Part shown: piece after piece, positions 209 through 42,327 of the stretch
How positions within the stretch are numbered: the first letter of the stretch is position 1
How the letters are laid out: each line of letters opens with the position of its first letter
Assembly: GCA_002356215.1 (NCBI GenBank)
Contig: AP017959.1
Coordinates: forward strand, 248,001 to 312,000
Length of the DNA stretch: 64,000 bases
DNA from: [Synechococcus] sp. NIES-970
Lineage (GTDB): Bacteria > Cyanobacteriota > Cyanobacteriia > Cyanobacteriales > MRBY01
Direction of reading: 5' to 3'
The notes under the pieces: generated by a model
The model's database searches: none
What the model was told of the DNA's origin: nothing
The model's input: the letters and a program-made list of their open reading frames with translations, nothing else
Made by a program: the position numbers and the translations under genes

Positions 209-285
209 TGTAACCCCGTAAATTTCGCTCTTGTCACCCGAAGCGACTTAAGATTTGTACTGAGTAATTTAGGGGAACCCAGTAC

Positions 286-2259: not shown

Positions 2260-2265
2260 ACAAAT

Positions 2266-2299: not shown

Positions 2300-2325
2300 C
2301 TCAATGTCTCAAATCAGGCCAGGGT

Positions 2326-3486: not shown

Positions 3487-3634
3487 AGCTGATACAAATT
3501 TAATTTACTGGTATTTTCTTTAAGCTATTGTAACAATATATCCTTCTGGGACGGTGTGCCTGTCATGGTGGCTACCAGAAAGTCGAAAAAATTTACATTT
3601 CTTCGGTTTATTTTTCAGCTTTGGACACAGTTTT

Positions 3635-5818: not shown

Positions 5819-5956
5819 AGGGGAGGAGGGAGGAGGAGAAAAATATGCCGAAAACTGCTAGCAACTTCCTAGAGAACAATCATTGAAATATTTATTCAAG
5901 GATTGTCTTGAATTATAGTGCTGGTTTCAAAGGGAAGAATGGGATTTCTTGTCCAC

Positions 5957-6394: not shown

Positions 6395-6539
6395 GTACCG
6401 AAACTCAAATGGGGGGATTTTTCACAATATAATTCAAGCGGGGATAGCCGCCTTTGGGTTGTGATGGTAACCGCTGCCCTCATCATAACTTGACGACTGG
6501 GTCTGGGTTGTCTGCATGCTGTAGTGTTTTGTTAAGCTT

Positions 6540-8387
6540 ATGACTATTTCTCTTCCTTATCTCCGAGCATCAGGTTCCCTCGCGCTCACGTTTCAGGGGG
6601 CAGACCTCGTGGGCGATCGCTATTGGGTCGTCGCCCCGCAAATTTGGCAAGATACTAAGCCTGAAGCGCCGCCTGCCTGCACTGAGCTCACCAATATCCT
6701 GGCCCAAAAATATGGCAAACTCTATCCGCGTCAACTCCATTTACCCCGGGTGTATGATGTGCTTTCCTTGCCAGAGGGGGATATTTTATTACTAGATAAT
6801 CTGCCAATCAATGACCACGGGGAGCTACTCCCGGCCCTCGGGGCGCTGTGGGAAAAGGCTTCTCCCTTACAACAGTTGAGCTGGCTGTGGCAAATGACTG
6901 AGCTGTGGGAAGATTTGGCAGCGGTGGCGCTGGGGACGAGCCTTTTACCGTTGGAGAATATCCGGGTAGATGGTTGGCGAATCCGCCTCATGGAACTTGT
7001 GGAAGATCCGGCAGATAAGCCTGCGACTTTGGCAGCGGTGGTAACCCAGTGGCGATCGCTTTTACCCCAGAGCCATCCCAGTATCCAGGAGCCTTTAGGG
7101 GCTATTTTTGAAGACCTTGGGCAGCCCGATGGAGACCGGGAAACGATTTTAGGGCGCCTTAATGAGCTACTTTTGGCGCAGTCGAGCCAACATCAACTCC
7201 AAATGGCGATCGCCTCTGCCACAGACCGGGGAAAAAATCCTCCCCTCAATCAGGATTCCCACTACCCAACAACCCAAGATCTTGCGGCGCCACCCAGTGC
7301 TCTGCTCGATTTGAGCGATCATTTACTCATTGTCTGTGATGGGGTTGAAGGCCATGCCCAGGGGGAAGTGGCGAGTCAATTGGCGGTTCAATCGCTGAAA
7401 TTACAACTGACAGGGTTTTTCCAAGGAATATTTGATGCAGATACGATCCTTGAGCCAGCAGTGATTGCGCAGCAGTTAGCCGCCTATATCCGCATCACTA
7501 ACAACATGATCGCCGACCGTAATGATCGCGAAGGACGCACCGGGGGCGATCGCCTCGCCACAACCCTCACTTTGGCTCTGCAACTTCCCCAAAGGCTCAG
7601 TCAGGGAGAGAGGCAAGACCGCCATAGCCATGAACTTTATATTGCCCAGGTGGGGGATAGTCGCGCCTATTGGCTAACTCAAAGTCAATGTATCTGTTTA
7701 ACGGTGGATGATGATGTGGTAGCCCGGGAAGTCCAGGCTGGCCGCGCGGTATATCGCCAAGCCCGCCTACGCCCGGACCACATGGCCCTCACCGAAGCTC
7801 TGGGAACAAAGACAGGCGATCGCCTCCACCCGGTCATTCGTCGTTTTGTCTTCGCCGAAGATGGGGTTCTGGTGGTTTGCTCTGACGGTCTCAGTGACCA
7901 GCATTTTTTAGAGCGTCACTGGCAAACCTTTGCGCCGGTGATTATCCAGGGTCACTTGCCCCCTGGCACCATGCTCCAGACTTTGATGAACCAGGCGATC
8001 GCCCAGCAACAAGATGACAATATTACGGCAGTGGTTGCCTTTTATCGCTTTACGATGGATGCCCTAGATGAGGTCCCAGAAATAGCAGATCTCCCTGCCC
8101 TCAGCGAGTTCGCCCCGGAGTTATTGCCCCCTGATTTTGCGCCAGAAGAGCCAGAAACAAATCCAGACATAGATCCAGTGGATCAAGAATTAGAGCTCAG
8201 CCCAACATCTAGCCCAACATCTAGTGAAAAGCAAGACGGCCCCTCCCAACTCACCTTGGTTATTGGGGGTTTGGTGATCGCGCTCGTCTTCTTCGTTTTA
8301 GTGGCCCTTGGCTTGAGCTGGCTATTAAATCGCGAGACCCCGCCGCCGCCAGAAACAACCCCGGGACAACCTACAAGCTCAACGTAG
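6540..8387 (+). CDS. PP2C-type protein phosphatase with kinase-like N-terminus and C-terminal membrane anchor
   Basis: A 615-residue protein. Residues ~220-510 form a PPM/PP2C phosphatase domain: NQDSHYP, VCDGVEGH, GDRLATTLT, VGDSRAYW, VCSDGLSDQ and DDNITAVV supply the metal-binding aspartates. The first ~215 residues resemble a degenerate protein kinase fold. The phrase LLPLENIRVDGWRIRLMEL sits where the catalytic and DFG loops would be, but the catalytic Asp and the DFG are not evident. After an acidic, Pro-rich linker a single hydrophobic helix (VIGGLVIALVFFVLVAL) near the C-terminus anchors the protein, so the enzyme would face the cytosol. Its substrates are unknown. The 3' end overlaps the convergent murG gene by 17 bases. 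Confidence 0.88.
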   Translation: MTISLPYLRASGSLALTFQGADLVGDRYWVVAPQIWQDTKPEAPPACTELTNILAQKYGKLYPRQLHLPRVYDVLSLPEGDILLLDNLPINDHGELLPALGALWEKASPLQQLSWLWQMTELWEDLAAVALGTSLLPLENIRVDGWRIRLMELVEDPADKPATLAAVVTQWRSLLPQSHPSIQEPLGAIFEDLGQPDGDRETILGRLNELLLAQSSQHQLQMAIASATDRGKNPPLNQDSHYPTTQDLAAPPSALLDLSDHLLIVCDGVEGHAQGEVASQLAVQSLKLQLTGFFQGIFDADTILEPAVIAQQLAAYIRITNNMIADRNDREGRTGGDRLATTLTLALQLPQRLSQGERQDRHSHELYIAQVGDSRAYWLTQSQCICLTVDDDVVAREVQAGRAVYRQARLRPDHMALTEALGTKTGDRLHPVIRRFVFAEDGVLVVCSDGLSDQHFLERHWQTFAPVIIQGHLPPGTMLQTLMNQAIAQQQDDNITAVVAFYRFTMDALDEVPEIADLPALSEFAPELLPPDFAPEEPETNPDIDPVDQELELSPTSSPTSSEKQDGPSQLTLVIGGLVIALVFFVLVALGLSWLLNRETPPPPETTPGQPTSST

Positions 8388-9432
8388 TGCGCAGAAAATC
8401 AGCAATTTGTTCGGCACTTTGGGGGAGCCCCAAGGTCGCGGCATTGGCGGCGATCGCCTCCCGTTTTGCTGGATGGCGCAGCAGGTCTAAAACCATCTCT
8501 GACAGTCGTTCTGGTGTTAGGTCTTTTTGGGGTGCTAAGAGCCCTGCCTGGTGTTTGACAAAAACCTGGGCATTGATCGTTTGGTGATCTTCCGCTGCGT
8601 AGGGGTAGGGAATCAAAATAGCAGCGGTTTTTGTAATCGTTAATTCTGTTAAGGCACTGGCACCGGAGCGACTAACGACCACACTTGCCCGCTGGAGTAG
8701 GGCCGCAATTTTGTCGGTAAAGGGCAAAGGGAAGTAATGGGGATCTTGGAACTGCGCTACATCAGGGTCATTTTTCCCCGTGATATGCACAATGACCGCC
8801 CCTGCCGCGATCCAATCAACGGCACATTGGCGCACCAACTGATTGATGCCTACGGCCCCCTGGGAGCCCCCCATCACCAAAATTAAAGGGCGATCGCCAG
8901 GTAAATTTAGGTCAAGGGCTTGGGGGGTCAGAAATTCTGGTCGGACAGGGGTCCCGAGGTGAAGGGTTCTAGCTTTGGGGAGGTACTGAGCCGATTCTTG
9001 GAAGCCAATCACCACCGCCGTTGCGTATTTCCCCAGAAAGCGGGTCACTTTGCCGGGGAGGACATTGGACTCGTGAAGAATGACCGGAATCCGGCGCCAA
9101 CGGGCCGCCAGGATTGCTGGTGCCGCAATGTAGCCCCCAGTGGTAAAGACAAGATCAATGCGGCGATCGCCCAAAATTTTGTGGGTCTGGAACACGGAGG
9201 CTAGCAGTTGCAGGCCATTTTTTAGTTTTTGTAAAGGTTTACCTTGGAGCCCCTTCGCCGTCACTGTATGGCGATGATATTCCCCTGGGACAAGATCAGT
9301 TTCGAGGCGATCGGGGGTTCCCAGCCACTCGATGTCACAGTCAGTTAATTGTTTAGCCACCGCCAGGGCCGGAAAGAGATGCCCTCCAGTGCCACTGGCG
9401 GCCATGAGAATTCGGGTTACTGCCTTTGCCAC
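8371..9432 (-). CDS. murG: UDP-GlcNAc:lipid I N-acetylglucosaminyltransferase MurG
   Basis: A 353-residue GT-B glycosyltransferase that adds GlcNAc to lipid I to form lipid II on the inner face of the plasma membrane, for peptidoglycan synthesis. It contains the N-terminal glycine-rich loop AASGTGGHLFPALAVA and VMGGSQGAVGIN. It also has SRSGASALTE and PYPYAAEDHQTINA, which bind UDP-GlcNAc in this family. Length and start are typical. No other division and cell-wall genes surround it. It is convergent with and overlaps the phosphatase gene, and diverges from the secreted-protein gene at 9538. Confidence 0.96.
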   Translation of the reverse strand: MAKAVTRILMAASGTGGHLFPALAVAKQLTDCDIEWLGTPDRLETDLVPGEYHRHTVTAKGLQGKPLQKLKNGLQLLASVFQTHKILGDRRIDLVFTTGGYIAAPAILAARWRRIPVILHESNVLPGKVTRFLGKYATAVVIGFQESAQYLPKARTLHLGTPVRPEFLTPQALDLNLPGDRPLILVMGGSQGAVGINQLVRQCAVDWIAAGAVIVHITGKNDPDVAQFQDPHYFPLPFTDKIAALLQRASVVVSRSGASALTELTITKTAAILIPYPYAAEDHQTINAQVFVKHQAGLLAPQKDLTPERLSEMVLDLLRHPAKREAIAANAATLGLPQSAEQIADFLRTTLSL

Positions 9433-9537
9433 AATTTCAGTTGTTTTTCGTCTCAGGTTCTAGAATAGATTACATGGTCTGCTTAACGGAAGGAAACGGG
9501 GCCGATTCTGCCGATTCTTAAGGAGTAAAGAGAATTT

Positions 9538-10323
9538 ATGGGTTATGGGCACTTTTTAAAACGGTTTTTTAGTTTGGCGATCGCCACAGGAATGTTCACC
9601 CTCGGTTATGGTCTACGCACCGAAGCTCGTCCGCCAACAACAGCTCCGGCAGATCTGACGACTCTCCTGGCCGAGATTGACCAGGCGGCCAACGGCCAGC
9701 AACTCGATCAGCTCATGACCTTCTACAGTGAAAACTTTAGCCATAGTGATGGTTTGGCGAAGGGCGAATTTCAGACCCTAGTGACGCAGCTTTGGGAAGA
9801 TTATCCACGGCTCACCTACAACACAAGGCTCCTCAGTTGGGATCAAACGGACGATCGCCTCACCGCTGAAACTGAAACCCAAATCCAAGGGGTCAAGCGC
9901 GAAGCAGGTCGCTGGATCGATTACAACAGCACCATCCGTGCCCAACAAACCTTCCAAGGGGGCCAAATGATCAGCCAAGAGATCCTCTCAGAAGCTTCAA
10001 CCCTGACCAGTGGTGATAATCCCCCAGTTGTGCAGGTCGTGATCCCAGAAACCGTGGCCCCAGAAGCGGACTTTGGCTTCGATGTGATTGTTCAAGATCC
10101 TCTAGGCGATGAAATTTTACTTGGTGGTGCCCTTGAAGAAACGATTACTGGCACAACCTACAGCGATCCGGGCGCCTTTGAATTAGATCTTCTCCCTGCT
10201 GGGGGAATCTTTAAACGGGTGGTCGCCCCCGCAGACCCTGGTGATATGTGGTACTCCGCCATTGTTGTGCGCAGTGATGGCATGGTCTTGACGACTAACC
10301 GGGTCAAGGTTCAGGGCAACTAA
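9538..10323 (+). CDS. Secreted protein with NTF2-like region
   Basis: A 261-residue protein not recognised by name. It starts with a basic, hydrophobic signal peptide (about residues 1-30, KRFFSLAIATGMFTLGYG), so it is probably exported to the periplasm. Residues ~35-155 look like an NTF2/SnoaL-type small domain (LDQLMTFYSENFSHSDG and a Trp/Tyr-rich middle). Residues ~160-260 form a beta-rich second domain. An AAGGAG-like ribosome site lies about 13 bases before the ATG, which supports this start. A strong terminator follows at 10356-10380. Function unknown; NTF2-like domains often bind small ligands. Confidence 0.75.
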   Translation: MGYGHFLKRFFSLAIATGMFTLGYGLRTEARPPTTAPADLTTLLAEIDQAANGQQLDQLMTFYSENFSHSDGLAKGEFQTLVTQLWEDYPRLTYNTRLLSWDQTDDRLTAETETQIQGVKREAGRWIDYNSTIRAQQTFQGGQMISQEILSEASTLTSGDNPPVVQVVIPETVAPEADFGFDVIVQDPLGDEILLGGALEETITGTTYSDPGAFELDLLPAGGIFKRVVAPADPGDMWYSAIVVRSDGMVLTTNRVKVQGN

Positions 10324-10355
10324 TTTGAGCCAGCTATGATTATTTGCCTCGCTGC

Positions 10356-10380
10356 AATCTCCCTTATTGGGAGATTTTTT
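10356..10380 (+). terminator. Rho-independent terminator of the secreted-protein gene
   Basis: AATCTCCC pairs with GGGAGATT around a TTATT loop and is followed by TTTT. It lies 33 bases after the stop codon at 10323. Confidence 0.85.
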
Positions 10381-10439
10381 ACTTTTAGGGCCTATTGAGG
10401 TCTTCGGCCAGTTATTCACAACCCATGGCAAATGATCTG

Positions 10440-10913
10440 TCATCGGTGTTTTTGTTGTCTGGGGGGTAAAGGGGCCACATCGCGGTCTGGTTCGGATGGG
10501 GGGGCGTCGTCGGGATGACTTTGCTTCATGAAGTAATAGCCCACTGTCAGGGATAAAATAATGGCTGCAATGCCAAATAAACTCAAACTATCGGTGGTTT
10601 TGATATCCAGAATAATTACCTTGCGGGCGATCGCAATAATCGCCACCGAGAGTACCACTTCAAAATGGGGGCGCCCCTTGGTGAGGTAGGTATTGATAAT
10701 GCTTTCTAGTAGCTCGATGCCGATGATGATCAGCATAAAGAGGCTAAAGATTTCTAGCAGCTGTTCTCCCTCGATAAGTAATCGTGGTGGTGCCAAAATA
10801 CTTTGAAAAAGCACCCAACCGAAGTCCAGGGTTGCCAACCCAATGGCGATCGCCATCATCGTCAGGAGCACCTGAATCATCAACCTTTCGTAGCGCTTAA
10901 ATAGATTGTGCAT
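10440..10913 (-). CDS. PsiE-family (phosphate-starvation-inducible E) membrane protein
   Basis: A 157-residue membrane protein when begun at the ATG at 10913 (MHNLFKRYERLM). A longer reading to 10958 needs a TTG start and adds a polar, low-quality stretch. Four hydrophobic segments are visible, including VLLTMMAIAIGLATLDF, LFMLIIIGIELLESI and SLFGIAAIILSLTVGYYF. The conserved GRPHFEVVLSVAIIAIARKVI stretch is typical of PsiE proteins. The C-terminus is a polar, proline-rich tail. The molecular role of PsiE is not established. It lies downstream of mutS2 on the same strand and may share its transcript. Confidence 0.8.
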   Translation of the reverse strand: MHNLFKRYERLMIQVLLTMMAIAIGLATLDFGWVLFQSILAPPRLLIEGEQLLEIFSLFMLIIIGIELLESIINTYLTKGRPHFEVVLSVAIIAIARKVIILDIKTTDSLSLFGIAAIILSLTVGYYFMKQSHPDDAPPSEPDRDVAPLPPRQQKHR

Positions 10914-10976
10914 GGGTTCCCTGGGGCCGGAATGATTGGGCGGTCTGTTCCCCAGCAAACATTCTAGTACGAGGGG

Positions 10977-13421
10977 TTAATGGGAAAAATAGGCGAGGGT
11001 AACGCCAGCTCCGCCTTCCTTCTGATCAGCAAGGGTGAATTTTTGGATTTGGGGATGGTATTTCAGAAATTCATGGACCCCTTCCCGGAGCTTTCCGGTG
11101 CCTTTGCCATGGATAATCCAAAGCACATGGGCGCCGGCGGCGGTGGCGGTGGCGATCGCCTGTTCGAGTTGACTTTCGGCCTGGTGAATCCGTTGACCCC
11201 GAATATCAACGGTATTGTTGGCGGTGCGCACAGTAACTGTTTCCGGGGTTTTTGCTGGGGGTGGCGCTTGTTTTTTAGGTACTTTGGCCTTGGGTTCTAC
11301 TTCTACTTTTTGCCCCTGGAGCGATTCGATTTCCGTCCAGTCCAAGGACATTTTCATAATGCCAAAGCGGGCGACGAGGGTTTTGCTTTCTGCATCTAAT
11401 TCAATCACTTCGGCAGTTTGCCCCAGGCGCGAGATGCGAATTCTTTCCCCTAATTGTGGTTGGTAGCCTGGTTTTTTGGGGGTGGTTTTGGCGAGTTTGG
11501 TTTCGGCAATATCCCCCAGGGCTTGGGTGGCGGCTTGGGCTTTTTGGGCGGTGGGCTTGCCTTTTTGGAGGGTGCGGATCACCTGGGCGATTTCAGATTT
11601 CGCCTCGGCGATCGCCGCCTGCACCTGTTGATCCTGGGCGAGTTTCAATTCTGCTTCCCGGCGTTGGAGATCGGCGGCTTTCGCAGAAACTTCTGTGTAA
11701 AAACGTTCGGTCTGTTTGAGGAGGGCTTCTGCTTCCTTGGCTTTTTGCTCTTGGTCTCGCCGTTGGGCTTCCAGGGCGGCGATCACATCGTTGACATTGG
11801 TATTTGCATTCCCCAGCAGATTTTGGGCACTCTCGACAATTGCAGGATCTAGCCCCAACCGTTGGGCGATCGCCAAGGCATTAGAGCGGCCCGGAATACC
11901 CCAGAGGAGCTTATAGGTGGGCCGCAGGGAATATTCATCAAATTCGACGGAGGCATTTTCAAAGCGCTCATCCTCATATTTCAGGGCTTTGAGTTCCCCA
12001 TAGTGGGTGGTGGCGATCGTCAGCTGGGTATGGTCGGCGAGGTATTTCAACAGGGCGATCGCCAGGGCACTGCCTTCGGTAGGGTCGGTACCAGCCCCCA
12101 CTTCATCGAGGAGAACGAGATTGGTTTGATCTTCTGGTTGCAAAGCCTCGATAATGCGTCCAACCCGGCGAATATGTCCAGAAAAAGTCGATAAACTCTG
12201 TTGCAGAGATTGTTCGTCGCCGATATCGGCTAAAACTTGGTCAAACCAGGGGATTTCTACCGGGGCGATCGCCGGAATAAATAGGCCCACTTTTGCCATC
12301 AAAGCGGCCATGCCGAGGGTTTTGAGGGTGACAGTTTTTCCCCCTGTATTCGGCCCGGTGATCGCCACCACCCGGATATCAGGACGAATTTGTACATTGA
12401 TCGGCACCACCTCTAAGCTTTCTTCTTGTTTTTCCTGCCAAATCAGCAGGGGATGGCGCAAGTTACGCAGAATGGTTGGTTGCTCGGGGCTGACAAACTT
12501 TGGGGGATGGCCGTTAAGCCAGACACCATAGCGCATCCGGGCCAAGGCTAGGTCAAGGGTGGTGGCGATCGCCAAAAGTTTTTCTAAATCTTCCCCCACA
12601 GCCGCCACTTTCTCTGTTAACTGGCGCAGGACAATTTCAACCTCTCGTTCTTCCTGTTTGAGCGCTTGACGGAGGCGATTACCTACTTCGACGATCGCCT
12701 TGGGTTCAATGTAGAGGGTCGAGCCAGTACTAGAGATATCGTGAACAATGCCAGGAATTTGTTCTTTTTGGCCCGCTTTAACGGGCAAAACAAAGCGATC
12801 GCCCCGTTGGGTAATCACCGCCTCCTGGATCGAACTGCTGTGGCGCTGCATAATCCGCTGGAGGGTTTGATAGATTTGCTCCCTGGCCCCTTTGATCTTG
12901 ACGCGAATCCCTTCCAGTTTCGGACTGGCCCGGTCAGTCACATCGCCCCGATCATCGATGCAGTGGTGGATTTCTTGCTCCAGTTCTGGGTAGGTGCGCA
13001 GCTGTTCCACCAGATGAGTCAATTGGGGTAGATCTAATTCTGTATTTTCCACCAGGCGACGCAGGCGTCTTACCCCGGCCAGAGTGGTTGCAATAAGCAA
13101 TAAATCTTTCCCCGCGATCAGCCCACCCACCGCTGCTCGTTCTAAAGATTCGCTAATATCGCCAATGCCCTCAAAGGAAACCCCATTGTCCATCGCCCCA
13201 TCCAAGGCTTGCATCTCCACCGTTTGGGCCAAAAGCACTTCACTTTCTGCTTGGCTCTGGGGAAACACAAGTTGTTGGGCGGCGATCGACCCTAATTTTG
13301 TGGCAGCAAAGGTCGATAGATGCTGACAAAGGCGCGACCATTCGAGGAGCTTGAGGGTTTCGGCTTGGATCTGGGTCAAGGGCAATTCGTGGGAAATACT
13401 GCGAGAGTTACATTTTGACAT
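10977..13421 (-). CDS. mutS2: Endonuclease / ribosome-rescue factor MutS2
   Basis: An 814-residue MutS2. The ATPase core holds the Walker A GPNTGGKT near residue 355-362, Walker B LVLLDEVGAGTDP, and the family signature STFSGHIRR. A long coiled-coil region rich in Glu, Lys and Gln follows (about 530-640). The C-terminal Smr domain has VDIRGQRIHQAE and the nuclease signature HGKGTGKLREG. MutS2 suppresses recombination in some bacteria and splits collided ribosomes in others; which role applies here is unknown. The N-terminus is about 20 residues longer than many homologues, so an internal start is possible. It follows the TonB-like gene by 21 bases and probably shares its operon. Confidence 0.95.
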   Translation of the reverse strand: MSKCNSRSISHELPLTQIQAETLKLLEWSRLCQHLSTFAATKLGSIAAQQLVFPQSQAESEVLLAQTVEMQALDGAMDNGVSFEGIGDISESLERAAVGGLIAGKDLLLIATTLAGVRRLRRLVENTELDLPQLTHLVEQLRTYPELEQEIHHCIDDRGDVTDRASPKLEGIRVKIKGAREQIYQTLQRIMQRHSSSIQEAVITQRGDRFVLPVKAGQKEQIPGIVHDISSTGSTLYIEPKAIVEVGNRLRQALKQEEREVEIVLRQLTEKVAAVGEDLEKLLAIATTLDLALARMRYGVWLNGHPPKFVSPEQPTILRNLRHPLLIWQEKQEESLEVVPINVQIRPDIRVVAITGPNTGGKTVTLKTLGMAALMAKVGLFIPAIAPVEIPWFDQVLADIGDEQSLQQSLSTFSGHIRRVGRIIEALQPEDQTNLVLLDEVGAGTDPTEGSALAIALLKYLADHTQLTIATTHYGELKALKYEDERFENASVEFDEYSLRPTYKLLWGIPGRSNALAIAQRLGLDPAIVESAQNLLGNANTNVNDVIAALEAQRRDQEQKAKEAEALLKQTERFYTEVSAKAADLQRREAELKLAQDQQVQAAIAEAKSEIAQVIRTLQKGKPTAQKAQAATQALGDIAETKLAKTTPKKPGYQPQLGERIRISRLGQTAEVIELDAESKTLVARFGIMKMSLDWTEIESLQGQKVEVEPKAKVPKKQAPPPAKTPETVTVRTANNTVDIRGQRIHQAESQLEQAIATATAAGAHVLWIIHGKGTGKLREGVHEFLKYHPQIQKFTLADQKEGGAGVTLAYFSH

Positions 13422-13442
13422 TCCCTTTACACAAATTAAAGA

Positions 13443-14597
13443 TCAATCCTCCGATGCATCAGGATTGGCAGGCTCGATGGCGGGTGGTGCTGGCGGTGCG
13501 GGCGGATTAGCAGGTGAAGCTGGGGGAGGGCTAAAAGCCGCACAAAAAGCAGGCTCATAGCGATAATTAACGCTGACTCGATAGTTAATGTTGTTCCCAT
13601 CGAAGCGGGCGTTACGGATATCCTGGGCCGCCTGGCCGTCGAGGACATTACTGCCAGAACTCTGGGCTAAATTCACCTGGGAGGGAGCACCGTTACTGTT
13701 CACTACAACGGTGTAGGTGGCGGTGCCACTGGCTTGACTACTACAGGCATTCCGGGGATAGTTCCCCGATAAGGTGCGGCTTACCGTTGCACTATTGCGC
13801 GCCATCTGGGGTGGGGTCGGAGCCGTGTTACTGTCTCCACGGAGTTCTTGGGAGCGGAGTAACTCGGCATCAAAACGCACGTCATTGCCATTTTCTGGGG
13901 CGTTATTACGGGGGCGGGTGGCGATCGCCGCTTCTGCTTCTAGCTGTCGTTGCCGTTGGATCAAGTCAGCGTTATTTGACCGGGGCGTAATGGTTAACTG
14001 CTGCTGACTACCATTGCTTTCTGTCGAAGCTGGTGGTGCACCATTTACCTCGCCTGGAATCGAGAGGCTGGGCAAAGACTCACTGGGACGCACCGCTTCT
14101 AAGGGGGGTGGCGGCGGTAAAAAGCTCATATTCCGGGGGGGCGGGGGAGGCGTAAACCCGGAATAGCTGCTGGCAATGGGGGGAGGACTAATCGGCACAA
14201 AAGAAAAATTACTTTGGCCAAAATTAGGGCTCATGGGGGTGGGTAGCAGACTGAGGCTATTGGGGTCAGGGGCGATCGCCTGGCCATTGAGAGCCGACAT
14301 ATTCAAATCAAACCCCGGGTTTGTCTCAAAAATTGACAAATCCAGAGGAGGAGCCATGGTCGGTAGGCGATTTTGTACCTCCGGGGAAAGTTCCATCACA
14401 GGGACAACCGCTTGAACATCAGTGCTTTCCTCGGTGGGGTCAGAGGTAGCCCAAAAGGGAATCGTCAGGGCCGCTAATCCATGCAAGGCGATCGACCCCA
14501 ACACCGCGATTCCCTGGGGACGACGTCCATAGTTGCCCAATTTCTGAAATGTCTGGAGAAACTGCTCTGTGGGATTGTAGAGGCTTTTGTCTAGCAT
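13443..14597 (-). CDS. TonB-family protein (Pro-rich, periplasmic)
   Basis: A 384-residue protein with a short cytosolic start and one membrane helix near residues 28-45 (GIAVLGSIALHGLAALTIPFW). A long Pro/Ser/Asn-rich periplasmic spacer follows, with PPPPPR and PPPPPLE runs. The C-terminal domain, with YPRNACSSQASGTATYTVVV and DGQAAQDIRNARF, matches the TonB C-terminal fold. TonB proteins carry proton-motive energy from ExbBD to outer-membrane receptors. No exbBD or receptor gene is near. The protein then ends in another Ala/Pro-rich tail of about 35 residues after the TonB domain, which is unusual. It heads the likely tonB-like/mutS2/psiE-like transcript. Confidence 0.82.
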   Translation of the reverse strand: MLDKSLYNPTEQFLQTFQKLGNYGRRPQGIAVLGSIALHGLAALTIPFWATSDPTEESTDVQAVVPVMELSPEVQNRLPTMAPPLDLSIFETNPGFDLNMSALNGQAIAPDPNSLSLLPTPMSPNFGQSNFSFVPISPPPIASSYSGFTPPPPPRNMSFLPPPPPLEAVRPSESLPSLSIPGEVNGAPPASTESNGSQQQLTITPRSNNADLIQRQRQLEAEAAIATRPRNNAPENGNDVRFDAELLRSQELRGDSNTAPTPPQMARNSATVSRTLSGNYPRNACSSQASGTATYTVVVNSNGAPSQVNLAQSSGSNVLDGQAAQDIRNARFDGNNINYRVSVNYRYEPAFCAAFSPPPASPANPPAPPAPPAIEPANPDASED

Positions 14598-14736
14598 GGA
14601 TCTGGGGTTAACCTAGAAAAAAGGCTAAATATTAAAAAACATTGCTGTTCGATTCTAGCGGATCCCCTCATAAAATTTGGGTCGGGATGCGTCCGCTAGA
14701 ATGCCCTTAACGACCTTTTCCCTGGTAGAAAGTTTC

Positions 14737-16782
14737 ATGGCAAATCGTTTAGCCCAAACCAAAAGTCTTTATCTCCGTAAGCATGCAGAGAACCCGATCA
14801 ATTGGTGGTATTGGTGTGATGAGGCCCTAGCCCAGGCCAAAGCTGAAAATAAGCCGATTTTTTTGTCCATTGGTTATTCCTCTTGTCACTGGTGCACGGT
14901 GATGGAAGGGGAAGCTTTTTCGAATCCGGAAATTGCTGCCTATCTCAATCAATATTTTTTACCTATTAAAGTAGACCGGGAAGAAAGACCAGACATTGAC
15001 AGTATCTATATGCAGGCTTTGCAGTTGATGACTGGCCAGGGAGGATGGCCGCTGAATATTTTCCTGACGCCGGACGATTTACAGCCTTTCTATGGGGGCA
15101 CTTATTTTCCGCTGCAACCCCGGTACAATCGTCCGGGTTTTCTTGATGTGCTGACGTCAATTCGGCGCTTTTTTGATGAGGAACCAGAGAAACTTCAGGA
15201 GATCAAATCAGAAATTTTTATGGTACTCAGTCGTTCTGCTCAGTTGCCTCCAGGAGCAGTGACACTCGATGGCAGTCTACTACAACAAGGGTTGGAGCGT
15301 TGTACAGCGGTGGTGGCACGGCAGGATGCTGGCCCTAGTTTTCCGATGATTCCCTACGGGGCGATCGCCTTACAGGGTAGTCGCCTCACTGCCCAAGATA
15401 AGCACCATGGTTTAGACGTAAGCACCAAGCGGGGCCTAGATTTAACCTTGGGGGGCATCTATGACCATGTAGGCGGTGGCTTCCATCGCTACACCGTTGA
15501 TCCCCATTGGACAGTGCCCCACTTTGAAAAAATGCTCTATGACAATGGGCAAATCACAGAATTTCTCGCCAACCTCTGGGCCCAGGGGGTCACAGAACCC
15601 GCTTTCAAGACAGCTTTAGAAGGAACGGTAGCTTGGTTAGCCAGGGAAATGACAGCTCCCGCAGGCTATTTTTATGCCGCCCAGGATGCGGACAGCTTTT
15701 TAGAGTTGACCCATCCAGAGCCGGAAGAGGGGGCTTTTTATGTTTGGGACTATGATGAGTTGCAAGCCCAGCTGACCGCCGATCAATTCACAGAGCTCAG
15801 TGAGACTTTTTTTATTGCCCCAGACGGCAATTTTGAAGGAAAGATTGTTCTAAAACGCCGACATTCCGAAGAACTCTCGGAAAATATCCGAGCCATTCTC
15901 GATCGCCTATTTTTAGCACGCTATGGCAGTCCCAGAGATCAACTGACAAATTTTCCCCCGGCCCGGAACAACCAAGAGGTCAAGTCGGTTCCCTGGCCGG
16001 GACGTATTCCTGCGGTGACCGATACAAAAATGATCGTTGCTTGGAACAGTCTGATGATTTCAGGTCTGGCGCGAATCTATGGGGTGCTGAAGATGGAAAA
16101 AGCCTGGGATTTGGCGGTTAATGGCGCTAATTTCATCTTAGAAAATCAATGGCAAAATAACCACCTCTATCGACTTAACTTCGGTGATGCTCCAGATGGT
16201 GCAGCCCAGGCAGAAGATTATGCTTTTTTGATTAAAGCGCTCCTAGATCTGCAAACGAATCGCCCCTCAGAAATGATTTGGGTAGAAAAGGCGATCGCCC
16301 TCCAGACAGCCTTTGATGAAAACTTTTGGGCAACAGAGACGAAAGGCTATTTCAATAATCCCCATAGCCCAGAATTACTCATCCAAGAGCGGAGCTACCA
16401 AGACAACGCTACCCCTGCCGCCAATGGGGTCGCTGCCTGTAATTTAATACGTCTTTTTTTGCTGACTGAAAATACAATTTATTTAGAAAAAGCAACGCAA
16501 ATCTTAAAGGCCTTTGGTGCGATTTTGGAGACCTCTCCTCAACAAGTGCCGACCCTGGTATCCGCCCTCGATTGGTATCTCCATGGCACCGTGGTAAAAG
16601 CTCCCCATGAAAGACTCTTACCCCTGACCCAAATGTCGTTAAATACAGTTGCCCTGAAACCCACATTGGTATTACCCGCCGGGAGTATTGCCCTAGTTTG
16701 TCAAGGATTGAATTGTCTAGAACCCTGCCAAACTGAAGCTCAATTAATGACTCAAATACAGACGAGTCTCAATCGATTGTAA
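14737..16782 (+). CDS. DUF255 thioredoxin-fold / six-hairpin glycosidase-like protein (YyaL/SPATA20 family)
   Basis: A 681-residue protein from the ATG at 14737 ([20 protein letters not shown]), which matches the conserved N-terminus; the in-frame ATG at 14677 adds 20 unrelated residues. The first ~165 residues are a thioredoxin-like domain with [10 protein letters not shown] (CxxC) and [14 protein letters not shown]. The rest is an alpha/alpha-barrel like N-acylglucosamine epimerases, with [20 protein letters not shown] and [10 protein letters not shown]. The family is widespread in bacteria and animals, but its reaction is not established. It is a cytosolic protein with no signal peptide. 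The next gene follows after 55 bases on the same strand. Confidence 0.9.
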
Positions 16783-36133: not shown

Positions 36134-38203
36134 ATGACCCAAAATCCCCTCCTCATCGGCCAAGGTTTACCCCCTTTTGCAGATATTAGGCCGGAGCAGA
36201 TCGAACCCGCCGTCACCACTCTCCTTGACACCCTCGAACAGCAAGTCAGCAGTCTCGAAGCTAACCTCCAGCCCACTTGGGAAGCCTTTGTTGAACCCCT
36301 CACTCGCCTCGAAGAAAAACTGATGTGGACTTGGGGGGCGATCGGACATTTAATGAGTGTGAAAAATAGCCCCGAACTCCGTGCCGCCTACGAAAAAATG
36401 CAGCCCGCCGTAGTCCAATTCATTAACCGTTGGAGCCAGAGTCGCCCCATCTACGAAGGTTACAAAGCGATTCGCGAAAGTGATCAATGGCAAACCCTTG
36501 AGCCAGCCCAGCAGCGCATCGTTGAAGCCGCTCTCCAGGAAGCGGAGCTGGCCGGGGTGAGCCTTGACGGGGAAATCAAGGAAAAATTCAACGCCATCCA
36601 ATTAGAACTCGCAGATCTCTCGACGAAATTTTCTAATAATGTCCTTGATGCAACCAAGGCTTTCAAGCTCAAGCTAACGGATAAAGCCGATGTTGCTGGC
36701 TTACCTGATAGCGCCCTGAGCCTTGCGGCCCAAACCGCCCGCAGTGAAGGGGAAGATGAGGCCACCCCCGAAAACGGCCCCTGGGTGATTACCCTCGATT
36801 ACCCAAGCTATCTGCCCTTTTTGCAATATGCTGACAATCGAGACCTGCGGGAAAAGGTTTATAAAGCCGCAATTTCTAAGGCCTCCTCTGGGGAATTTGA
36901 TAACCATAACAATATCGATCGCATCCTCACCCTGCGCAAGCAAAAAGCAGAGATTTTAGGGTTTGCGAATTATGCTGAACTGAGCCTCGCCCGGAAGATG
37001 GCCCCCAATGTGGCGGCAGTAGAAAATTTGATGGAAGAGTTGCGCCAGGTCAGCTTCGATGCGGCCCAACAAGAATTGGCTGAACTGAAAACCTTTTCGG
37101 GACAAGCAGAACTCAAACATTGGGATATCGCTTACTGGTCAGAGAAGCAAAAAGAAGCTAAATTTGGCTTCAAAGCGGAAGAATTACGCCCCTATTTCTC
37201 TCTAGAGCGAGTGCTAGATGGTCTATTTGGTCTAGCCCAGCGTCTTTTTTCGGTGCAAATTGTTGCGGCGGACGGGAAAGCACCTGTATGGCAAGAGGAT
37301 GTGCGCTATTTCCAGATTAATGACGAATCCGGGACGCAAATCGCGAGTTTCTACCTCGATCCCTACAGCCGTCCGGCAGAAAAACGCGGTGGCGCTTGGA
37401 TGAATGATTGTGTCGGTCGGGCGAAATTAGTGGTCGATGGCCATACGGTAACCCGATTGCCTGTGGCTTATCTCATCTGCAATCAGACACCGCCCGTTGA
37501 TGGCAAGCCTAGTCTGATGACCTTTGGGGAAGTAGAAACGCTCTTCCATGAATTTGGTCACGGGCTGCAACATATGCTGACCCATGTGGATTACCCTGGG
37601 GCCGCTGGGATCAATAATGTGGAGTGGGATGCGGTGGAGCTGCCTAGCCAGTTTATGGAAAATTGGTGCTATCACCGAGAAACGTTGTTCGGTATGGCCA
37701 AGCATTACGAAACAGGCGAAACACTCCCAGAGCACTATTACCAAAAACTCCTAGCGGCACGCACTTACATGAGTGGCTCGGCAATGCTGCGGCAGTTGCA
37801 CTTTAGTTTGCTAGATATTGAACTGCACGCGAAATATGATCCGGCTAGTGATGAAACCCCTGAACAGGTGCGTGATCGCCTGGCAGAAACCACCACAGTC
37901 ATGAAGCCGTTACCCGAAGATTCTTTCCTCTGTGCCTTTGGTCATATCTTCGCTGGGGGCTATGCGGCGGGCTATTACAGCTACAAGTGGGCGGAAGTGC
38001 TCAGTGCCGATGCATTTGCAGCTTTTGAGGAAGTGGGTCTAGAAGATCCGGTGGCGATCGCCTCTGTCGGTAAAAAATTCCGCGAAACAGTTCTTGGTTT
38101 AGGCGGCAGTTTGCACCCAATGGAAGTGTTTAAAAAGTTCCGTGGACGCGAACCCCAAACCGAACCTTTACTCCGTCACAGCGGTTTATTGCAAACAGCA
38201 TAA
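36134..38203 (+). CDS. prlC: M3 family oligopeptidase A
   Basis: A 689-residue cytosolic metallopeptidase. It carries the zinc motif HEFGHGLQHMLTHVDYPGAAG (HExxH) and the C-terminal EDSFLCAFGHIFAGGYAAGYYSYKWAE typical of oligopeptidase A/thimet oligopeptidases. The enzyme degrades short peptides, including cleaved signal peptides. Length and start (MTQNPLLIGQGLPPFADI) match the family. It diverges from the M1 aminopeptidase gene across 165 bases, so two peptidase genes face away from each other. A strong terminator follows. Confidence 0.94.
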   Translation: MTQNPLLIGQGLPPFADIRPEQIEPAVTTLLDTLEQQVSSLEANLQPTWEAFVEPLTRLEEKLMWTWGAIGHLMSVKNSPELRAAYEKMQPAVVQFINRWSQSRPIYEGYKAIRESDQWQTLEPAQQRIVEAALQEAELAGVSLDGEIKEKFNAIQLELADLSTKFSNNVLDATKAFKLKLTDKADVAGLPDSALSLAAQTARSEGEDEATPENGPWVITLDYPSYLPFLQYADNRDLREKVYKAAISKASSGEFDNHNNIDRILTLRKQKAEILGFANYAELSLARKMAPNVAAVENLMEELRQVSFDAAQQELAELKTFSGQAELKHWDIAYWSEKQKEAKFGFKAEELRPYFSLERVLDGLFGLAQRLFSVQIVAADGKAPVWQEDVRYFQINDESGTQIASFYLDPYSRPAEKRGGAWMNDCVGRAKLVVDGHTVTRLPVAYLICNQTPPVDGKPSLMTFGEVETLFHEFGHGLQHMLTHVDYPGAAGINNVEWDAVELPSQFMENWCYHRETLFGMAKHYETGETLPEHYYQKLLAARTYMSGSAMLRQLHFSLLDIELHAKYDPASDETPEQVRDRLAETTTVMKPLPEDSFLCAFGHIFAGGYAAGYYSYKWAEVLSADAFAAFEEVGLEDPVAIASVGKKFRETVLGLGGSLHPMEVFKKFRGREPQTEPLLRHSGLLQTA

Positions 38204-38227
38204 ATTAATTGCTAATTTAAACTTAAT

Positions 38228-38265
38228 AAATGGGCTTCTGAGTTGATCCAAAAGCCCATTTTTTT
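38228..38265 (+). terminator. Rho-independent terminator of the M3 peptidase gene
   Basis: AAATGGGCTT (38228-38237) pairs with AAGCCCATTT (38252-38261), followed by a T run. It ends six bases before the ATG of the split AT-rich gene, so that gene would need its own promoter, which is not visible. Confidence 0.88.
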
Positions 38266-38271
38266 GCCTTT

Positions 38272-38736
38272 ATGATTAAAAATAAATTATCTGAGACAGT
38301 ATCTGTGAATACAGAAATAGGCAATGAATTCGAAAAAAGAATAAACTTCCTAAAAAGAATATCTAGAATAAAAGAGTGTTTTTGTAAGAACAAAAATTGT
38401 TCATCTCAAATCATTAATGCTCACTCAATACAAAATAATAAAATTCTTAGAGAAATCGCTGTTAATGGAAAAGTGATTTCTATAGTCCCCACAGAAGTCG
38501 ATAATCAATTTGCAACTAAGACAAAAAAAATAGGGAGAAAAGTGGCAACGGTTTCAACTAATTTTTGTGGATACCATGATACTGAATTTTTTTTGCCAAT
38601 TGAGTCTAAAGATTATCAAAAAAATAATCGACAACAAGAATTTCTGTTTGCGTATCGTGCGTTAGCTAAAGAGTATCATGCTAAGCGTGAAATGCTTTTA
38701 TTTTTAAGAAATAGTATATATCAGTCAAGTAGTTAA
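38272..38736 (+). CDS. N-terminal fragment of the split AT-rich gene
   Basis: A 154-codon open part that could still be translated. It has a charged start, then a putative zinc-binding block (ECFCKNKNC, NAHSIQNN and later TNFCGYHDTEFFLPIE). It ends FAYRALAKEYHAKREMLLFL followed by QSSS and TAA. The putative zinc ligands all lie in this half. No Shine-Dalgarno sequence is seen: the T run of the preceding terminator ends just before the ATG. Confidence 0.45.
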   Translation: MIKNKLSETVSVNTEIGNEFEKRINFLKRISRIKECFCKNKNCSSQIINAHSIQNNKILREIAVNGKVISIVPTEVDNQFATKTKKIGRKVATVSTNFCGYHDTEFFLPIESKDYQKNNRQQEFLFAYRALAKEYHAKREMLLFLRNSIYQSSS

Positions 38737-38751
38737 AAAAGATTAGATTTT

Positions 38752-39276
38752 TTGTCACAAGGCTTGCCCGGAATAAAAATTGCACTAAAACAATTAGAGT
38801 TTGAAAAGGTTTATTTTAACAAAAAACTGCAAATCTCCGATTTCAAGTTCCTTAAAACATATTATTTTGAATTTCGTGGTTTATCGGGAGTTGCCGCGTC
38901 TAGTTTGATTTCTATTGAAAAAGATTTGCTTGGTAATACTGTGAATAATATTGATGATTTCAATGAAGATCTTAGGTTGTTATTTTTGAGTGTCTTTCCT
39001 CAAAGAGATAAGACAGTTTTATTTTTGAGTTTTCACAAAAAAGAACAGGTTTTCAAAAATTTGATTAAACAAATACAAAAAATGCGCAAAATAGATCAGC
39101 AAATTATCTTTTCAAATATATTACTCTTTTATGTAGAAAACTTTGTTTTGTCTCCTTGCTTGTGGGATTCATACTCAATTCAAAAACAGCAAGATATACA
39201 AAGAGTAGTCTCTGAAATTGGTGAAGTAAACTCAAATAACTTAGGGCAAATCAAGAATATTAATCTTTTTTTGTGA
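38752..39276 (+). CDS. C-terminal fragment of the split AT-rich gene
   Basis: A 174-codon open part in the same frame as the preceding fragment. Its only start near the left end is a TTG at 38752, and an independent ribosome site is not obvious. The sequence is rich in Phe, Leu, Lys and Ile (TYYFEFRGLSGVAASSLIS, RLLFLSVFPQRDKTVLFLSF), with a helical C-terminus ending INLFL. It is best read as the distal half of a single gene, not as a gene of its own. No catalytic motif is evident. Confidence 0.4.
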   Translation: MSQGLPGIKIALKQLEFEKVYFNKKLQISDFKFLKTYYFEFRGLSGVAASSLISIEKDLLGNTVNNIDDFNEDLRLLFLSVFPQRDKTVLFLSFHKKEQVFKNLIKQIQKMRKIDQQIIFSNILLFYVENFVLSPCLWDSYSIQKQQDIQRVVSEIGEVNSNNLGQIKNINLFL

Positions 39277-39318
39277 GGTTGTTGCTTTGCCCCCATGAAC
39301 TCTGCCTCAGACATCCTC

Positions 39319-42300
39319 TTAGATAGAATCTAACCAGTTTTCCTCTGGGTCAGAATCCGCGCCAACATAGGCTGGAGGATTTGTTGCTCTGGTCGGGGAT
39401 TCTAAGCCATTAGCTGTTTGCTCTGGCTCATCTATACCTAACCATTGATCATCGGGTTGTTCAGCATCAAAGGAAACAGCCATCGTCGTCTCATCTTCGC
39501 CCCAATCATCATCAGGTTCATCGAGTTCAACTTCTGCGACCACAACTTCATCCGGTGCGACGACAGGAAGAATTTCTGCTTCTGTCGTTATAGATGGCTC
39601 TTCGGGTTCTGTGGGTTGCTCTTCCAGTTCCGGTAAGATCGCCACCTCTGCAATCGTCAGGGGTTCTTCCCGTTCGGGGCGTTGTCGATCAAAGACTAGT
39701 TGCCCATCGGCACAATCAACCACAATGCGATCGCCTTCTATGAAGTCCGTTTCTAGAATGCGGTTGGCGATCGGGTTTTCTAGCTCCCGCTGAATCGCCC
39801 GCTTGAGCGGTCTGGCCCCAAAGGTTGGGTCATAACCCGCTTCTACCACATGATCTAAAGCCTGATCCGTAAGTTGAAGCACAATTTTCTGATCTGCGAG
39901 TAACTTCTCAATGCGCTTAATTTGCAACTTCACAATTTCCTTTAACTCGTCCCGTTTGAGGGTATGGAAAATAATCAGCTCGTCAATGCGGTTCAAAAAT
40001 TCTGGCCGGAAATTTTTCCGTAGAGATCCTGTCACCTGATCGCGCATTTGATCGTAGTTCGCATCATCCCCTGACAAACTCAGGATAAACTCACTGCCAA
40101 TGTTGCTCGTCATTACGATGATCGTATTGCGAAAATCCACGACCCGTCCTTGAGAATCAGTGATCCGGCCATCATCTAGCACCTGTAACAGGATGTTAAA
40201 CACATCCTTATGGGCTTTTTCCACTTCATCTAGAAGCACCACCGAATAAGGGCGCCGCCGCACCGCCTCCGACAGTTGACCTCCTTCTTCGTAACCCACA
40301 TAGCCTGGAGGCGCTCCAATTAAACGCGACACGGCATGTTTTTCCATGTACTCGGACATATCAATACGCACCATCGCTTCTTCACTGTCAAAGAGTAGTG
40401 CCGCTAAAGCCCGTGCTAATTCTGTTTTGCCGACCCCCGTTGGCCCCATAAACATAAATGAACCAATCGGACGACTGGGATCCTTCATCCCAGCCCGGGC
40501 ACGACGGATTGCCGCAGAAACCGCTTCCACCGCTTCCTGTTGGCCAATAACTCGCTGATGAAGATGCCCTTCGAGTTGCAACAGCTTTTGGCGCTCCGAT
40601 TCCATCAGACGGTTCACGGGAATGCCAGTCCAACGGGCAACAATTTCCGCAATGTCTGCCTCGGTGACCTGTTCCCGGAGCATCGCATCCCCAGCCGCTT
40701 GAATTTCCAAAAGCTTGGCTTCTTTTTGGCTCAGTTCTGCTTGTAATCCTTCGAGGCGGCCATATTTTAATTGGGCCGCTTTGTTGAGGTCATAGGCTCG
40801 CTCTGCCTGTTCTACCTGGAGGCGCAATTGTTCTTCTTCTTCCTTAAGGCCATTAATCTCATCAATCAGATTCTTCTCCGCAAGCCACTGGGAAGAGAGG
40901 TCTTTTTGTTGAACTTCGAGATTTTTGATTTCCTCATCAATGCGATCAAGGCGTTCTTTGGATGCGAGGTAAGCTGGGGAATTGGCCCCCAGTTGTTCTT
41001 CTCCCTTCAGGGAAAGTTGTTCCATTTGTAGTTGCATCAAACGGCGATCGATCGCCTCTAGTTCTACAGGTTTAGAGGTGATCTCCATCTTAAGTTTGGC
41101 GGCAGCCTCATCCACCAAGTCGATCGCCTTATCCGGGAGAAAACGGTCGGTAATGTAGCGGTTCGAGAGGGTGGCCGCCGCAACCAGAGCAGAATCGGTA
41201 ATATTGACGCCGTGGTGCAGTTCATAGCGCTCTTTTAGACCCCGCAGGATTGAAACAGTATCCTCAACTGTGGGTTGTTTCACCAAAACCTGTTGAAAAC
41301 GTCGCTCCAGGGCCGGATCTTTTTCAATATGTTTGCGAAACTCATCAAGGGTGGTCGCCCCAATGCAGCGCAGTTCGCCCCGGGCCAGCATCGGCTTGAG
41401 CAGATTCCCCGCATCCATGGAGCCATTGGTGGAGCCGGCCCCTACGACGGTGTGGACTTCATCAATGAACAAAATAATTTGGCCGTCGGATTGGGTCACT
41501 TCTTTAAGCACCGACCGTAGCCGCGCTTCAAATTCGCCCCGATATTTTGCCCCGGCGATCAGGGAGCCCATATCCAAAGACATGAGTTGGCGGTTTTTTA
41601 ACGATTCAGGTACATCTCCATTAACAATTCGCTGGGCCAAGCCCTCGGCGATCGCCGTTTTACCGACCCCCGGCTCCCCAATGAGGACTGGATTATTTTT
41701 CGAACGGCGAGACAGCACCTGGATCACTCGGCGAATTTCATCATCCCGCCCGATGACTGGATCGAGTTTGCCGTCCTTCGCTTGCTCCGTCAGATCCCGG
41801 CCATATCTACCCAGGGCACTGCCATAGGCACTGCTACTGCCGCCATCTTCCCCTTCCTCTTGATTTTGCGTGGTGACCCTCTGGCTCCCCTTGACCGCTT
41901 TAATTTTTAGTTCAAAATCTTGGGGATCGAGGTTAAAACTTTTGAGCGATCGCCGCCCGATACGGTCATCTTCTGCAAAGCCCACCAGCAGATGCTCCAC
42001 AGAGATAAAATCATCCTGCCAACTGACCCGGCAGGCCTCTGCCCGGTCAAGCATCACATCCAGTTGGGGGCCGAGATAGAGTTGATCACCCCGCATCAAC
42101 TTCGGTTGCTGTTGCGTAAAGCGTTCAAGCTGTTGCTGAAGCCGCAGTGAGTCGATACCCGCCTGGGTCAAAATAATTTGGGCCAGCCCCTGATCCTGTT
42201 CCAACAAAGACAACAGTAAGTGCTCTACCTCAAGATTTTGGTGTCTGTAACGACGGGCGATCTCCTGTGACTTGACGATCGCATCCCAAGCTTGCTCGGT

Positions 42301-42327
42301 AAATTTGCTGGAATCAGTGGGCTGCAT
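39319..42327 (-). CDS. clpB: ClpB disaggregase (Hsp100) with acidic C-terminal extension
   Basis: A 1002-residue chaperone; ClpB proteins are usually about 870. It has a Clp-N domain (1-150), a first AAA+ ring domain with [13 protein letters not shown], the long coiled-coil M domain (about 410-530) and a second AAA+ domain with [13 protein letters not shown]. Together with DnaK it resolubilises aggregated proteins after heat or oxidative stress. The last ~120 residues (coding bases about 39322-39681) are an acidic tail. It holds Trp-centred motifs [15 protein letters not shown] and ENWLDSI that are not part of the family core. It is divergent from speD. Confidence 0.96.

What the first reader, a model, noticed from the sequence alone, without database searches (positions are those of the whole stretch)
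38272..39276. AT-rich accessory gene interrupted by a single in-frame TAA
Two open stretches of 154 and 174 codons lie in the same frame, separated only by one TAA and five sense codons. Joined, they make one ~334-residue protein: a Cys/His cluster (C36, C38, C43, H51, C99, H102), then a Phe/Leu/Lys-rich helical half. The DNA is clearly more AT-rich than its neighbours and has no HIP1 site. It sits alone between the M3 peptidase gene and clpB, directly after that gene's terminator. A recent nonsense mutation, regulated readthrough or a sequencing error are all possible. The insert looks horizontally acquired and is the strongest candidate here for an unfamiliar system, perhaps defence-related, though that is only a guess.
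Basis: partly seen in the sequence, partly recalled or inferred. Interest (0 to 1): 0.62.

Follow-up and report, generated by a model that had tools for sequence, protein, structure and literature searches.

The report
Broken copy of undescribed mobile gene
A cyanobacterium carries a horizontally acquired gene, cut in two by one young stop codon, from a widespread family of zinc-site proteins of unknown function that may help bacteria resist phages.

Summary
ORF A (38272-38736), an in-frame TAA (38734-38736) and an open downstream half (to 39276) form one 334-codon gene, the most AT-rich stretch of its length in the window. In relatives both halves lie in one frame: 52 of 58 loci fetched with family patterns; none of the loci examined encodes the halves as two genes. 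The stop falls in the variable linker between a zinc-type domain and the C half. The C half keeps 6 of 6 highly conserved residues and has no second stop, so the stop is young, or an error; relaxed selection is not supported. The family rides on plasmids, P2-like prophages and islands, is AT-rich against its flanks in 42 of 44 loci, and in sister genomes the same slot holds other cargo, once type I restriction genes. Its core has no clear Pfam, NCBIfam, PADLOC or PHROG model, no PDB match for a confident AlphaFold model, and no study in the search listings I saw. Defence is plausible but unproven: the neighbour test was inconclusive, an HNH-nuclease test failed, and free-phage records hold almost no members. 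Verdict: young pseudogene of an undescribed mobile family.

The parts
36134..38203 (+).
38225..38264 (+). Hairpin with T-run after the upstream gene, its terminator; the insertion begins just after it
   Evidence: (I5); similar hairpins by eye in five sister genomes
38268..39310 (.). Inferred inserted segment (boundaries approximate): similarity to sister genomes is lost between the terminator and the 3' end of clpB
38272..38733 (+). 5' open half (154 codons): zinc-type domain plus the first long helix; the first ATG is 5 bases past the T-run and the true start may be further in
38377..38379 (+). C36, putative zinc ligand
   Evidence: 48 of 48, 19 of 20
38398..38400 (+). C43, putative zinc ligand
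   Evidence: 48 of 48, 20 of 20
38422..38436 (+). H51-S-I-Q-N55 motif; H51 invariant, the others only typical of part of the family; putative active or ligand-binding site
   Evidence: H 20 of 20, S 14 (T 6), Q 16, N 11 of 20; 48 of 48, but those loci were fetched with this motif
38566..38580 (+). C99-x-x-H102-D103 motif, invariant
   Evidence: 48 of 48, 20 of 20
38656..38658 (+). R129, invariant
   Evidence: 48 of 48, 20 of 20
38734..38736 (+). In-frame TAA, in the variable linker between the two conserved halves
38737..39273 (+). 3' open half (179 codons), aligns with the C half of intact homologues; TGA stop at 39274-39276
39319..42327 (-).

Best explanation
The feature is a young pseudogene: one single-gene, horizontally mobile accessory unit, inserted between the terminator of the upstream peptidase gene and clpB, later cut by one nonsense codon. 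SHOWN: one gene in relatives, mobile and AT-rich, conserved Cys/His motifs, stop in a linker, no second lesion. INFERRED: the intact protein has an N-terminal zinc-stabilised domain (ligands C36, C43, C99, H102) with conserved polar residues (H51, D103, R129, with S52, Q54, N55 in part of the family) that form a catalytic or nucleic-acid/ligand-binding site, joined by a long helical hairpin to a less conserved C-terminal half that I take to be the sensing or partner-binding part. The window copy should yield only a 154-residue product (zinc domain and one of the two long helices) and is most likely inactive.
For: One gene: 52 of 58 loci (51 distinct sequences) have both halves in one uninterrupted frame. 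In 291 cyanobacterial genomes 10 match: the own copy (1 TAA), 8 intact (4 of them identical to genes among the 58; G043's reported TAA lies upstream of its ATG) and one weak 55-residue hit with a TGA. In 20 genomes that had supplied loci, 23 of 23 matches have no stop inside. Mobility: 29 plasmid records, 22 with at least 80% of the query; E. coli P2-like prophages between gene D and ogr (one search shows it after D, ogr not listed); 92 of 5426 E. coli genomes; 12 viral-collection contigs. Slot: type I restriction genes plus MNT/HepT in G001, a ParA/ParB-like pair in G002, a 174-aa gene in G003. AT-rich against flanks in 42 of 44 loci, mean -7.0 points. Young stop: of the columns at least 90% conserved in 48 relatives the window keeps 21 of 23 in the N half and 6 of 6 in the C half; in simulation 40 neutral substitutions in the C half (7% of its bases) leave no new stop in only 4% of runs. 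Fold: AF2 model of an intact relative, pLDDT 93.4, pTM 0.92, helices 105-135 and 141-171; the stop maps to about residue 143 of it, in a gap-rich stretch.
Against: Defence: 140 neighbours of the family in 20 loci against 140 genes of control stretches gave 83 against 55 PADLOC models at 1e-15, but that counts redundant models, not proteins, and one control kinase alone matches 31: inconclusive. Of 50,697 phage records only 2 match, and those look like host chromosome pieces. By eye several of the closest cyanobacterial members sit among housekeeping-like genes. Nuclease: profile comparison with an HNH alignment gave probability 0.3%. The window's C half scores lower than those of its nearest relatives (138.5 bits against 172-185 for L026-L028, while the N half is equal), which could hint at decay. 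The stop cannot be told from a base-calling error here. A 156-aa short form exists (L064, L081-L083), so the 154-residue product might still work.
Confidence: 0.72

Rival explanations
1. The stop is a base-calling or assembly error and the gene is intact.
For: Everything else about the gene looks intact: one lesion only, conserved residues kept in both halves, downstream half scores as a family member (138.5 bits).
Against: The assembly is nearly complete (99.99% complete, 5 contigs), though that says nothing of single bases. A homopolymer indel error would shift the frame, whereas this is a same-frame stop, so a substitution error would be needed. Broken copies also occur elsewhere in the family.
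Confidence: 0.13
2. The gene is functional as a short form: the 154-residue N-terminal domain alone is the working product and the rest is debris.
For: A 156-aa form that ends in the corresponding helix exists in L064 and three viral-collection contigs. The zinc-type domain is complete in ORF A. The C half scores lower than in near relatives. With free topologies the window's C half seemed to evolve much faster than its N half (branch ratio 3.9).
Against: With one fixed topology the ratio is 2.0, inside the range of the eleven relatives (0.76-2.66), and largest in only 5 of 100 bootstraps. The C half keeps 6 of 6 highly conserved residues and no further stop. The four short loci share one protein sequence, so they are probably one event.
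Confidence: 0.1
3. Programmed stop-codon readthrough or reinitiation makes a long and a short form.
For: The frame is open on both sides and a TTG lies five codons after the stop.
Against: No intact relative examined has a stop at this place. TAA is normally the least leaky stop (recalled).
Confidence: 0.05
4. The family is not a defence system but other mobile-element cargo, for example a toxin, a regulator of the element or a ribosome or SecA-pathway modulator (9 of 20 aligned members carry an N-terminal SEC-C motif).
For: SEC-C motif in 9 of 20 members. The neighbour test was inconclusive. No PADLOC model clearly matches the core. Almost absent from free-phage records.
Against: The window copy and other members lack SEC-C, so it is optional. 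The same slot holds type I restriction genes in a sister genome, and Abi or AbiH genes stand near it in 3 of the 12 plasmid and phage-collection stretches viewed first; L019 has CD-NTase/SLATT-like neighbours, recognised by eye.
Confidence: 0.35

Closest known systems
'SEC-C domain-containing protein' / 'YecA family protein' entries on plasmids and E. coli prophages
   Same: Same family: 22-32% identity in the plasmid records that cover 80-93% of the joined protein in one piece; same Cys/His/Asp/Arg positions.
   Different: These annotation names seem to rest on an optional N-terminal SEC-C motif, which the window copy lacks. The search listings I saw held no study of the family.
P2-like prophage defence cargo (old, tin and other hotspot genes; PMC9122126, passages read)
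   Same: Single accessory gene carried at one slot of P2-like prophages in the three E. coli records viewed.
   Different: The published hotspot is between gpA and gpQ; this family sits between D and ogr. No sequence relation was tested.
HNH / His-Me finger nucleases (PF01844)
   Same: Two Cys, a conserved His, then C-x2-(C/H) followed by a polar residue, in the same order (my reading).
   Different: C-x6-C instead of C-x2-C; profile comparison probability 0.3%; no Pfam HNH match in 48 members.
Single-gene abortive-infection proteins on lactococcal plasmids (as a kind; recalled)
   Same: About 360 aa, solitary, on Lactococcus plasmids among IS elements.
   Different: No PADLOC Abi model among the 8 families that match any of 20 members at E 0.1.

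Membership tests
The undescribed family defined here (alignments A1 and A3) | C43, H51, C99, H102, D103 and R129 (window numbers), in order | tested here: met
   all present in the window copy
The undescribed family defined here (alignments A1 and A3) | N and C halves in one protein of about 310-380 aa | tested here: not met
   Homologous over both halves (170.3 and 138.5 bits) but the window frame is interrupted by TAA: a broken member
SEC-C motif proteins (PF02810) | SEC-C motif | tested here: not met
   No match in the window protein; 9 of 20 aligned members have it
HNH nucleases (PF01844) | Profile similarity to the HNH core | tested here: not met
   hhalign probability 0.3%, 9 columns, against 30 HNH domains; no HNH family among the 21 weak Pfam hits of 48 members
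HNH nucleases (PF01844) | Beta-beta-alpha metal finger fold | tested here: inconclusive
   Full model shows two 2-residue strands (36-37, 79-80) before a helix (85-91), not seen in the lower-confidence domain-only model; no coordinates at hand; no significant PDB match
Known anti-phage systems (PADLOC 2.0.0) | Match of the protein core to a system model | tested here: not met
   Window halves and joined protein: none. Among 20 members only weak matches, best E 4.9e-6, to E2, E1-E2, PDC-S12 and others; that these reflect SEC-C is inference
Anti-phage defence genes | Enrichment beside known defence genes | tested here: inconclusive
   140 neighbours from 20 of the 46 genome loci against 140 control genes from the same genomes
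Anti-phage defence genes | Reduced phage plating when expressed | not testable with these tools
   Needs an experiment

The most novel reading that the evidence does not exclude
The intact family is an undescribed one-protein anti-phage or anti-element system with an unrecognised fold: a zinc-stabilised domain carrying an invariant His/Asp/Arg site, joined by a helical hairpin to a more variable sensor half, spread over Cyanobacteria, Bacilli, Clostridia, Proteobacteria and archaeal MAGs by plasmids, prophages and solitary insertion, and repeatedly lost again (nonsense here, frameshift in L057, IS insertion in L158).
Probability: 0.35. Interest if true: 0.7.

Novelty: new variant of a known kind. 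Interest (0 to 1): 0.4.

Why it matters
The broken copy itself is ordinary: mobile accessory genes are often lost this way. What matters is the family behind it. It is widespread, its core has no clear domain model or solved relative, and I found no study of it in the listings I saw. It rides on plasmids and P2-like prophages, so intact members can be tested directly in laboratory strains. It also marks the peptidase-clpB gap of this cyanobacterial genus as a site of cargo turnover.

Tried and rejected
HNH nuclease: suggested by motif order, rejected as a membership claim by profile comparison; fold level left open. Faster decay of the C half: looked strong with free topologies (ratio 3.9), not upheld with a fixed topology and bootstraps, so dropped; the lower C-half score is left unexplained. 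H-S-x-Q-N as an invariant site: the 48 loci of A3 were fetched with patterns that contain it; in 20 members found without patterns only H is invariant, so the claim was cut back. Defence-neighbour enrichment: inconclusive; only model counts are returned, 25 families shown. Pfam on the same two sets: resolvase 3, phage integrase 2, transposase 1 and terminase 1 in the visible part (25 of 100 families) for neighbours, against 2 DDE transposases in the visible part (25 of 143) of the control: suggestive only. Free phages: of 50,697 records 2 match in each of three searches. Fold searches of the full model and of the zinc domain alone (PDB, VIA, and BFVD for the full model): nothing significant; this does not prove a new fold. 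Rfam: one sub-threshold hit overlapping the terminator, dismissed. Flanking direct repeats: none that frame the insertion. Promoter-like sites at chance level (5 against 4.7 expected). Literature: eight searches, seen as listings (in most of them only part of the hits is listed); PMC9519451 (section 7 and passages), PMC9122126 (passages) and PMC12111858 (passages) were read. The few papers that name SEC-C proteins were not opened. Rows dropped: A3 holds 48 of the 58 loci; left out were L057 (frameshifted), L064, L081, L082, L083 (short), L071 (contig end), L060 (no start found), L062 (start doubtful, overlong), L070 (short C end) and L074 (same as L041). Of the 10 genomes, G169 (L010) and the weak G054 (L013) were not put in alignment A1. 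One search skipped L049 and L071 of 46 (flank under 6 kb).

Full report
OBSERVATION. The window has an ATG frame of 154 codons (38272-38736) closed by TAA at 38734-38736, then 179 open codons in the same frame to TGA at 39274-39276. The segment is 28.7% GC in a 49.3% window and holds the lowest-GC 1005-base windows of the 64 kb. None of 2000 mononucleotide shuffles gave runs this long. The absence of a HIP1 site is not informative (107 sites in 64 kb, with longer gaps elsewhere).

ONE GENE. Searching with the stop read as X found, in 291 cyanobacterial genomes, 10 with a match: the window's own (1 TAA), eight intact genes of 320-345 open codons, and one weak 55-residue hit with a TGA. The TAA reported for G043, the closest relative at 48% identity, lies upstream of its ATG. 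A first scan of the species genomes with the single sequence found no relative; a scan with a motif from an alignment gave 46 loci, and one of viral contigs gave 12. In 52 of these 58 both halves are in one uninterrupted frame; L057 is frameshifted, L064 and L081-L083 are short and share one protein sequence, L071 is cut by its contig end. Four of the eight cyanobacterial genes are identical to genes among the 58, so the two sets overlap. None of the loci examined encodes the halves as two genes.

THE STOP. It falls in a length-variable linker. In the AlphaFold model of the intact relative L026 it maps to about residue 143, where the first long helix (105-135) has ended and the second (141-171) begins. 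Of the columns at least 90% conserved in 48 relatives the window copy keeps 21 of 23 in the N half and 6 of 6 in the C half; both differences are shared with L026. Random substitution of the C half at the local base composition leaves no new stop in 17.5% of runs at 20 substitutions, 4% at 40 (7% of its bases) and 1% at 60, so probably little neutral change has followed the stop. Two results point the other way. The C half scores 138.5 bits against 172-185 for L026-L028, while the N half is equal to theirs. A first tree comparison gave a fast C half (branch ratio 3.9), but with a fixed topology the ratio is 2.0 against 0.76-2.66 in eleven relatives and largest in 5 of 100 bootstraps. The stop is therefore young, or not real; I cannot tell these apart.

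HORIZONTAL ORIGIN. In the genus, the M3 gene and clpB lie within about 10 kb of each other in four of six genomes but with different contents between them: the window gene; in G001 HsdR-, HsdS- and HsdM-type genes with an MNT/HepT pair and an 825-aa gene; in G002 a ParA-type protein with an HSDR_N-like domain plus a ParB_N protein; in G003 a 174-aa gene with no Pfam match. In G004 and G005 clpB was not found in the stretches fetched. The family member of G004, in the same genus, lies far from its M3 gene, between other genes. By eye a hairpin with T-run follows the M3 gene in all five sisters, so the insertion lies just after the resident terminator. Across 44 genome loci with enough flank the gene is more AT-rich than its flanks in 42, by 7.0 points on average over the 44, and more AT-rich than every flank window tested in 15. 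Family members occur in 29 plasmid records and in P2-like prophages between gene D and ogr (in one search after D, ogr not listed). They also occur in an integrase- and AlpA-containing stretch of a Salmonella plasmid and in what looks like an integrated element of E. coli ECOR29. 92 of 5426 E. coli genomes have a close relative of the prophage copy. In an even draw over the phylum 3 of 386 genomes match at 1e-8, so it is rare and patchy. Of 50,697 phage records only two match, and these look like host chromosome pieces.

WHAT THE PROTEIN IS. In 20 homologues found without motif patterns, C43, H51, C99, H102, D103, F107 and R129 (window numbers) are invariant and C36 is 19 of 20; position 52 is S or T, Q54 is 16 of 20, N55 11 of 20, position 289 E or D. 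In the 48 members of A3, 13 residues are invariant, among them S52, Q54 and N55, but those loci were fetched with patterns that hold this motif. C36, C43, C99 and H102 are spaced like ligands of a treble-clef zinc site (inference). H51, D103 and R129 are invariant polar residues not needed for that, hence a likely active or binding site (inference). Nine of 20 members add an N-terminal SEC-C motif; the window copy does not. Apart from SEC-C-type and other weak hits no Pfam, NCBIfam, PADLOC or PHROG model describes the core. The model of L026 is confident (pLDDT 93.4, pTM 0.92), yet the best Foldseek E-values are 0.084 in the PDB and 0.036 in BFVD, VIA's best Z is 3.3, and the profile finds no PDB sequence. 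The zinc domain alone gave a weaker model (pLDDT 77.8) and no significant match. Motif order resembles an HNH nuclease, but comparison with 30 HNH domains from related genomes gave probability 0.3%. I do not call it HNH.

FUNCTION. For defence: mobile single-gene cargo; the same slot holding type I restriction genes in a sister genome; Abi or AbiH genes near it in 3 of the 12 plasmid and phage-collection stretches viewed first, a restriction endonuclease in another, toxin-antitoxin genes in several, CD-NTase/SLATT-like neighbours in L019 (by eye). Against: two of the twelve show no such neighbour by name, the matched neighbour test was inconclusive, free phages almost lack the family, and close cyanobacterial members sit mostly beside ordinary genes, though L027 lies by a YoeB/YefM-like pair and L028 by a cytosine methyltransferase-like gene (by eye). 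Defence is my best guess at about 0.5.

LITERATURE. Eight full-text searches, seen as listings, showed no study of the family. PMC9122126 (passages) places the P2 defence hotspot between gpA and gpQ, not at D-ogr. PMC9519451 (section 7) lists a zinc-finger-like defence protein whose identity I could not match; PADLOC holds at least one set of models named after that screen (PD-T4-6) and gave no clear match to our core.

VERDICT. A young, nonsense-interrupted copy of an undescribed, mobile, zinc-type accessory family. The interruption is ordinary; the intact family is the interesting part.

Noticed in passing
L057:761-1704 (Paenibacillus gorillae): Another broken family member: similarity runs through shifted frames.
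   Followed up: partly
L064, L081, L082, L083 near 7875-8445: One 156-aa truncated family gene; L064/L083 and L081 share about 100 bases downstream and then diverge, and the L082 contig ends at the gene; may be the edge of an element.
   Followed up: partly
L158:4001-6407 (E. coli CFSAN027346): Family member in a P2-like prophage split by an IS600-type transposase gene.
   Followed up: no
L094:3583-3732 and 3735-4361 (G005): Downstream of the M3 gene a Uma2-type gene is followed by a diverged second copy of the M3 3' end, as if cargo entered at that gene's end.
   Followed up: partly
L096:4347-4900 (G003): The M3 peptidase gene is frameshifted near its 3' end.
   Followed up: no
L019 (OR846759.1) 28-15648: A record named Listeria phage looks like a host chromosome piece: guaA-like gene at one end, then helicase/OLD-like genes, the family member and CD-NTase/SLATT-like genes (by eye).
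   Followed up: no
L093 and L099 (G001): Type I restriction genes with an MNT/HepT pair in the middle, in the same peptidase-clpB slot as the window gene.
   Followed up: yes
E. coli records (15 of 92 listed): RefSeq names the family member 'YecA family protein' in 12 of the 15 rows listed, perhaps from the SEC-C motif; the label may hide the family.
   Followed up: no
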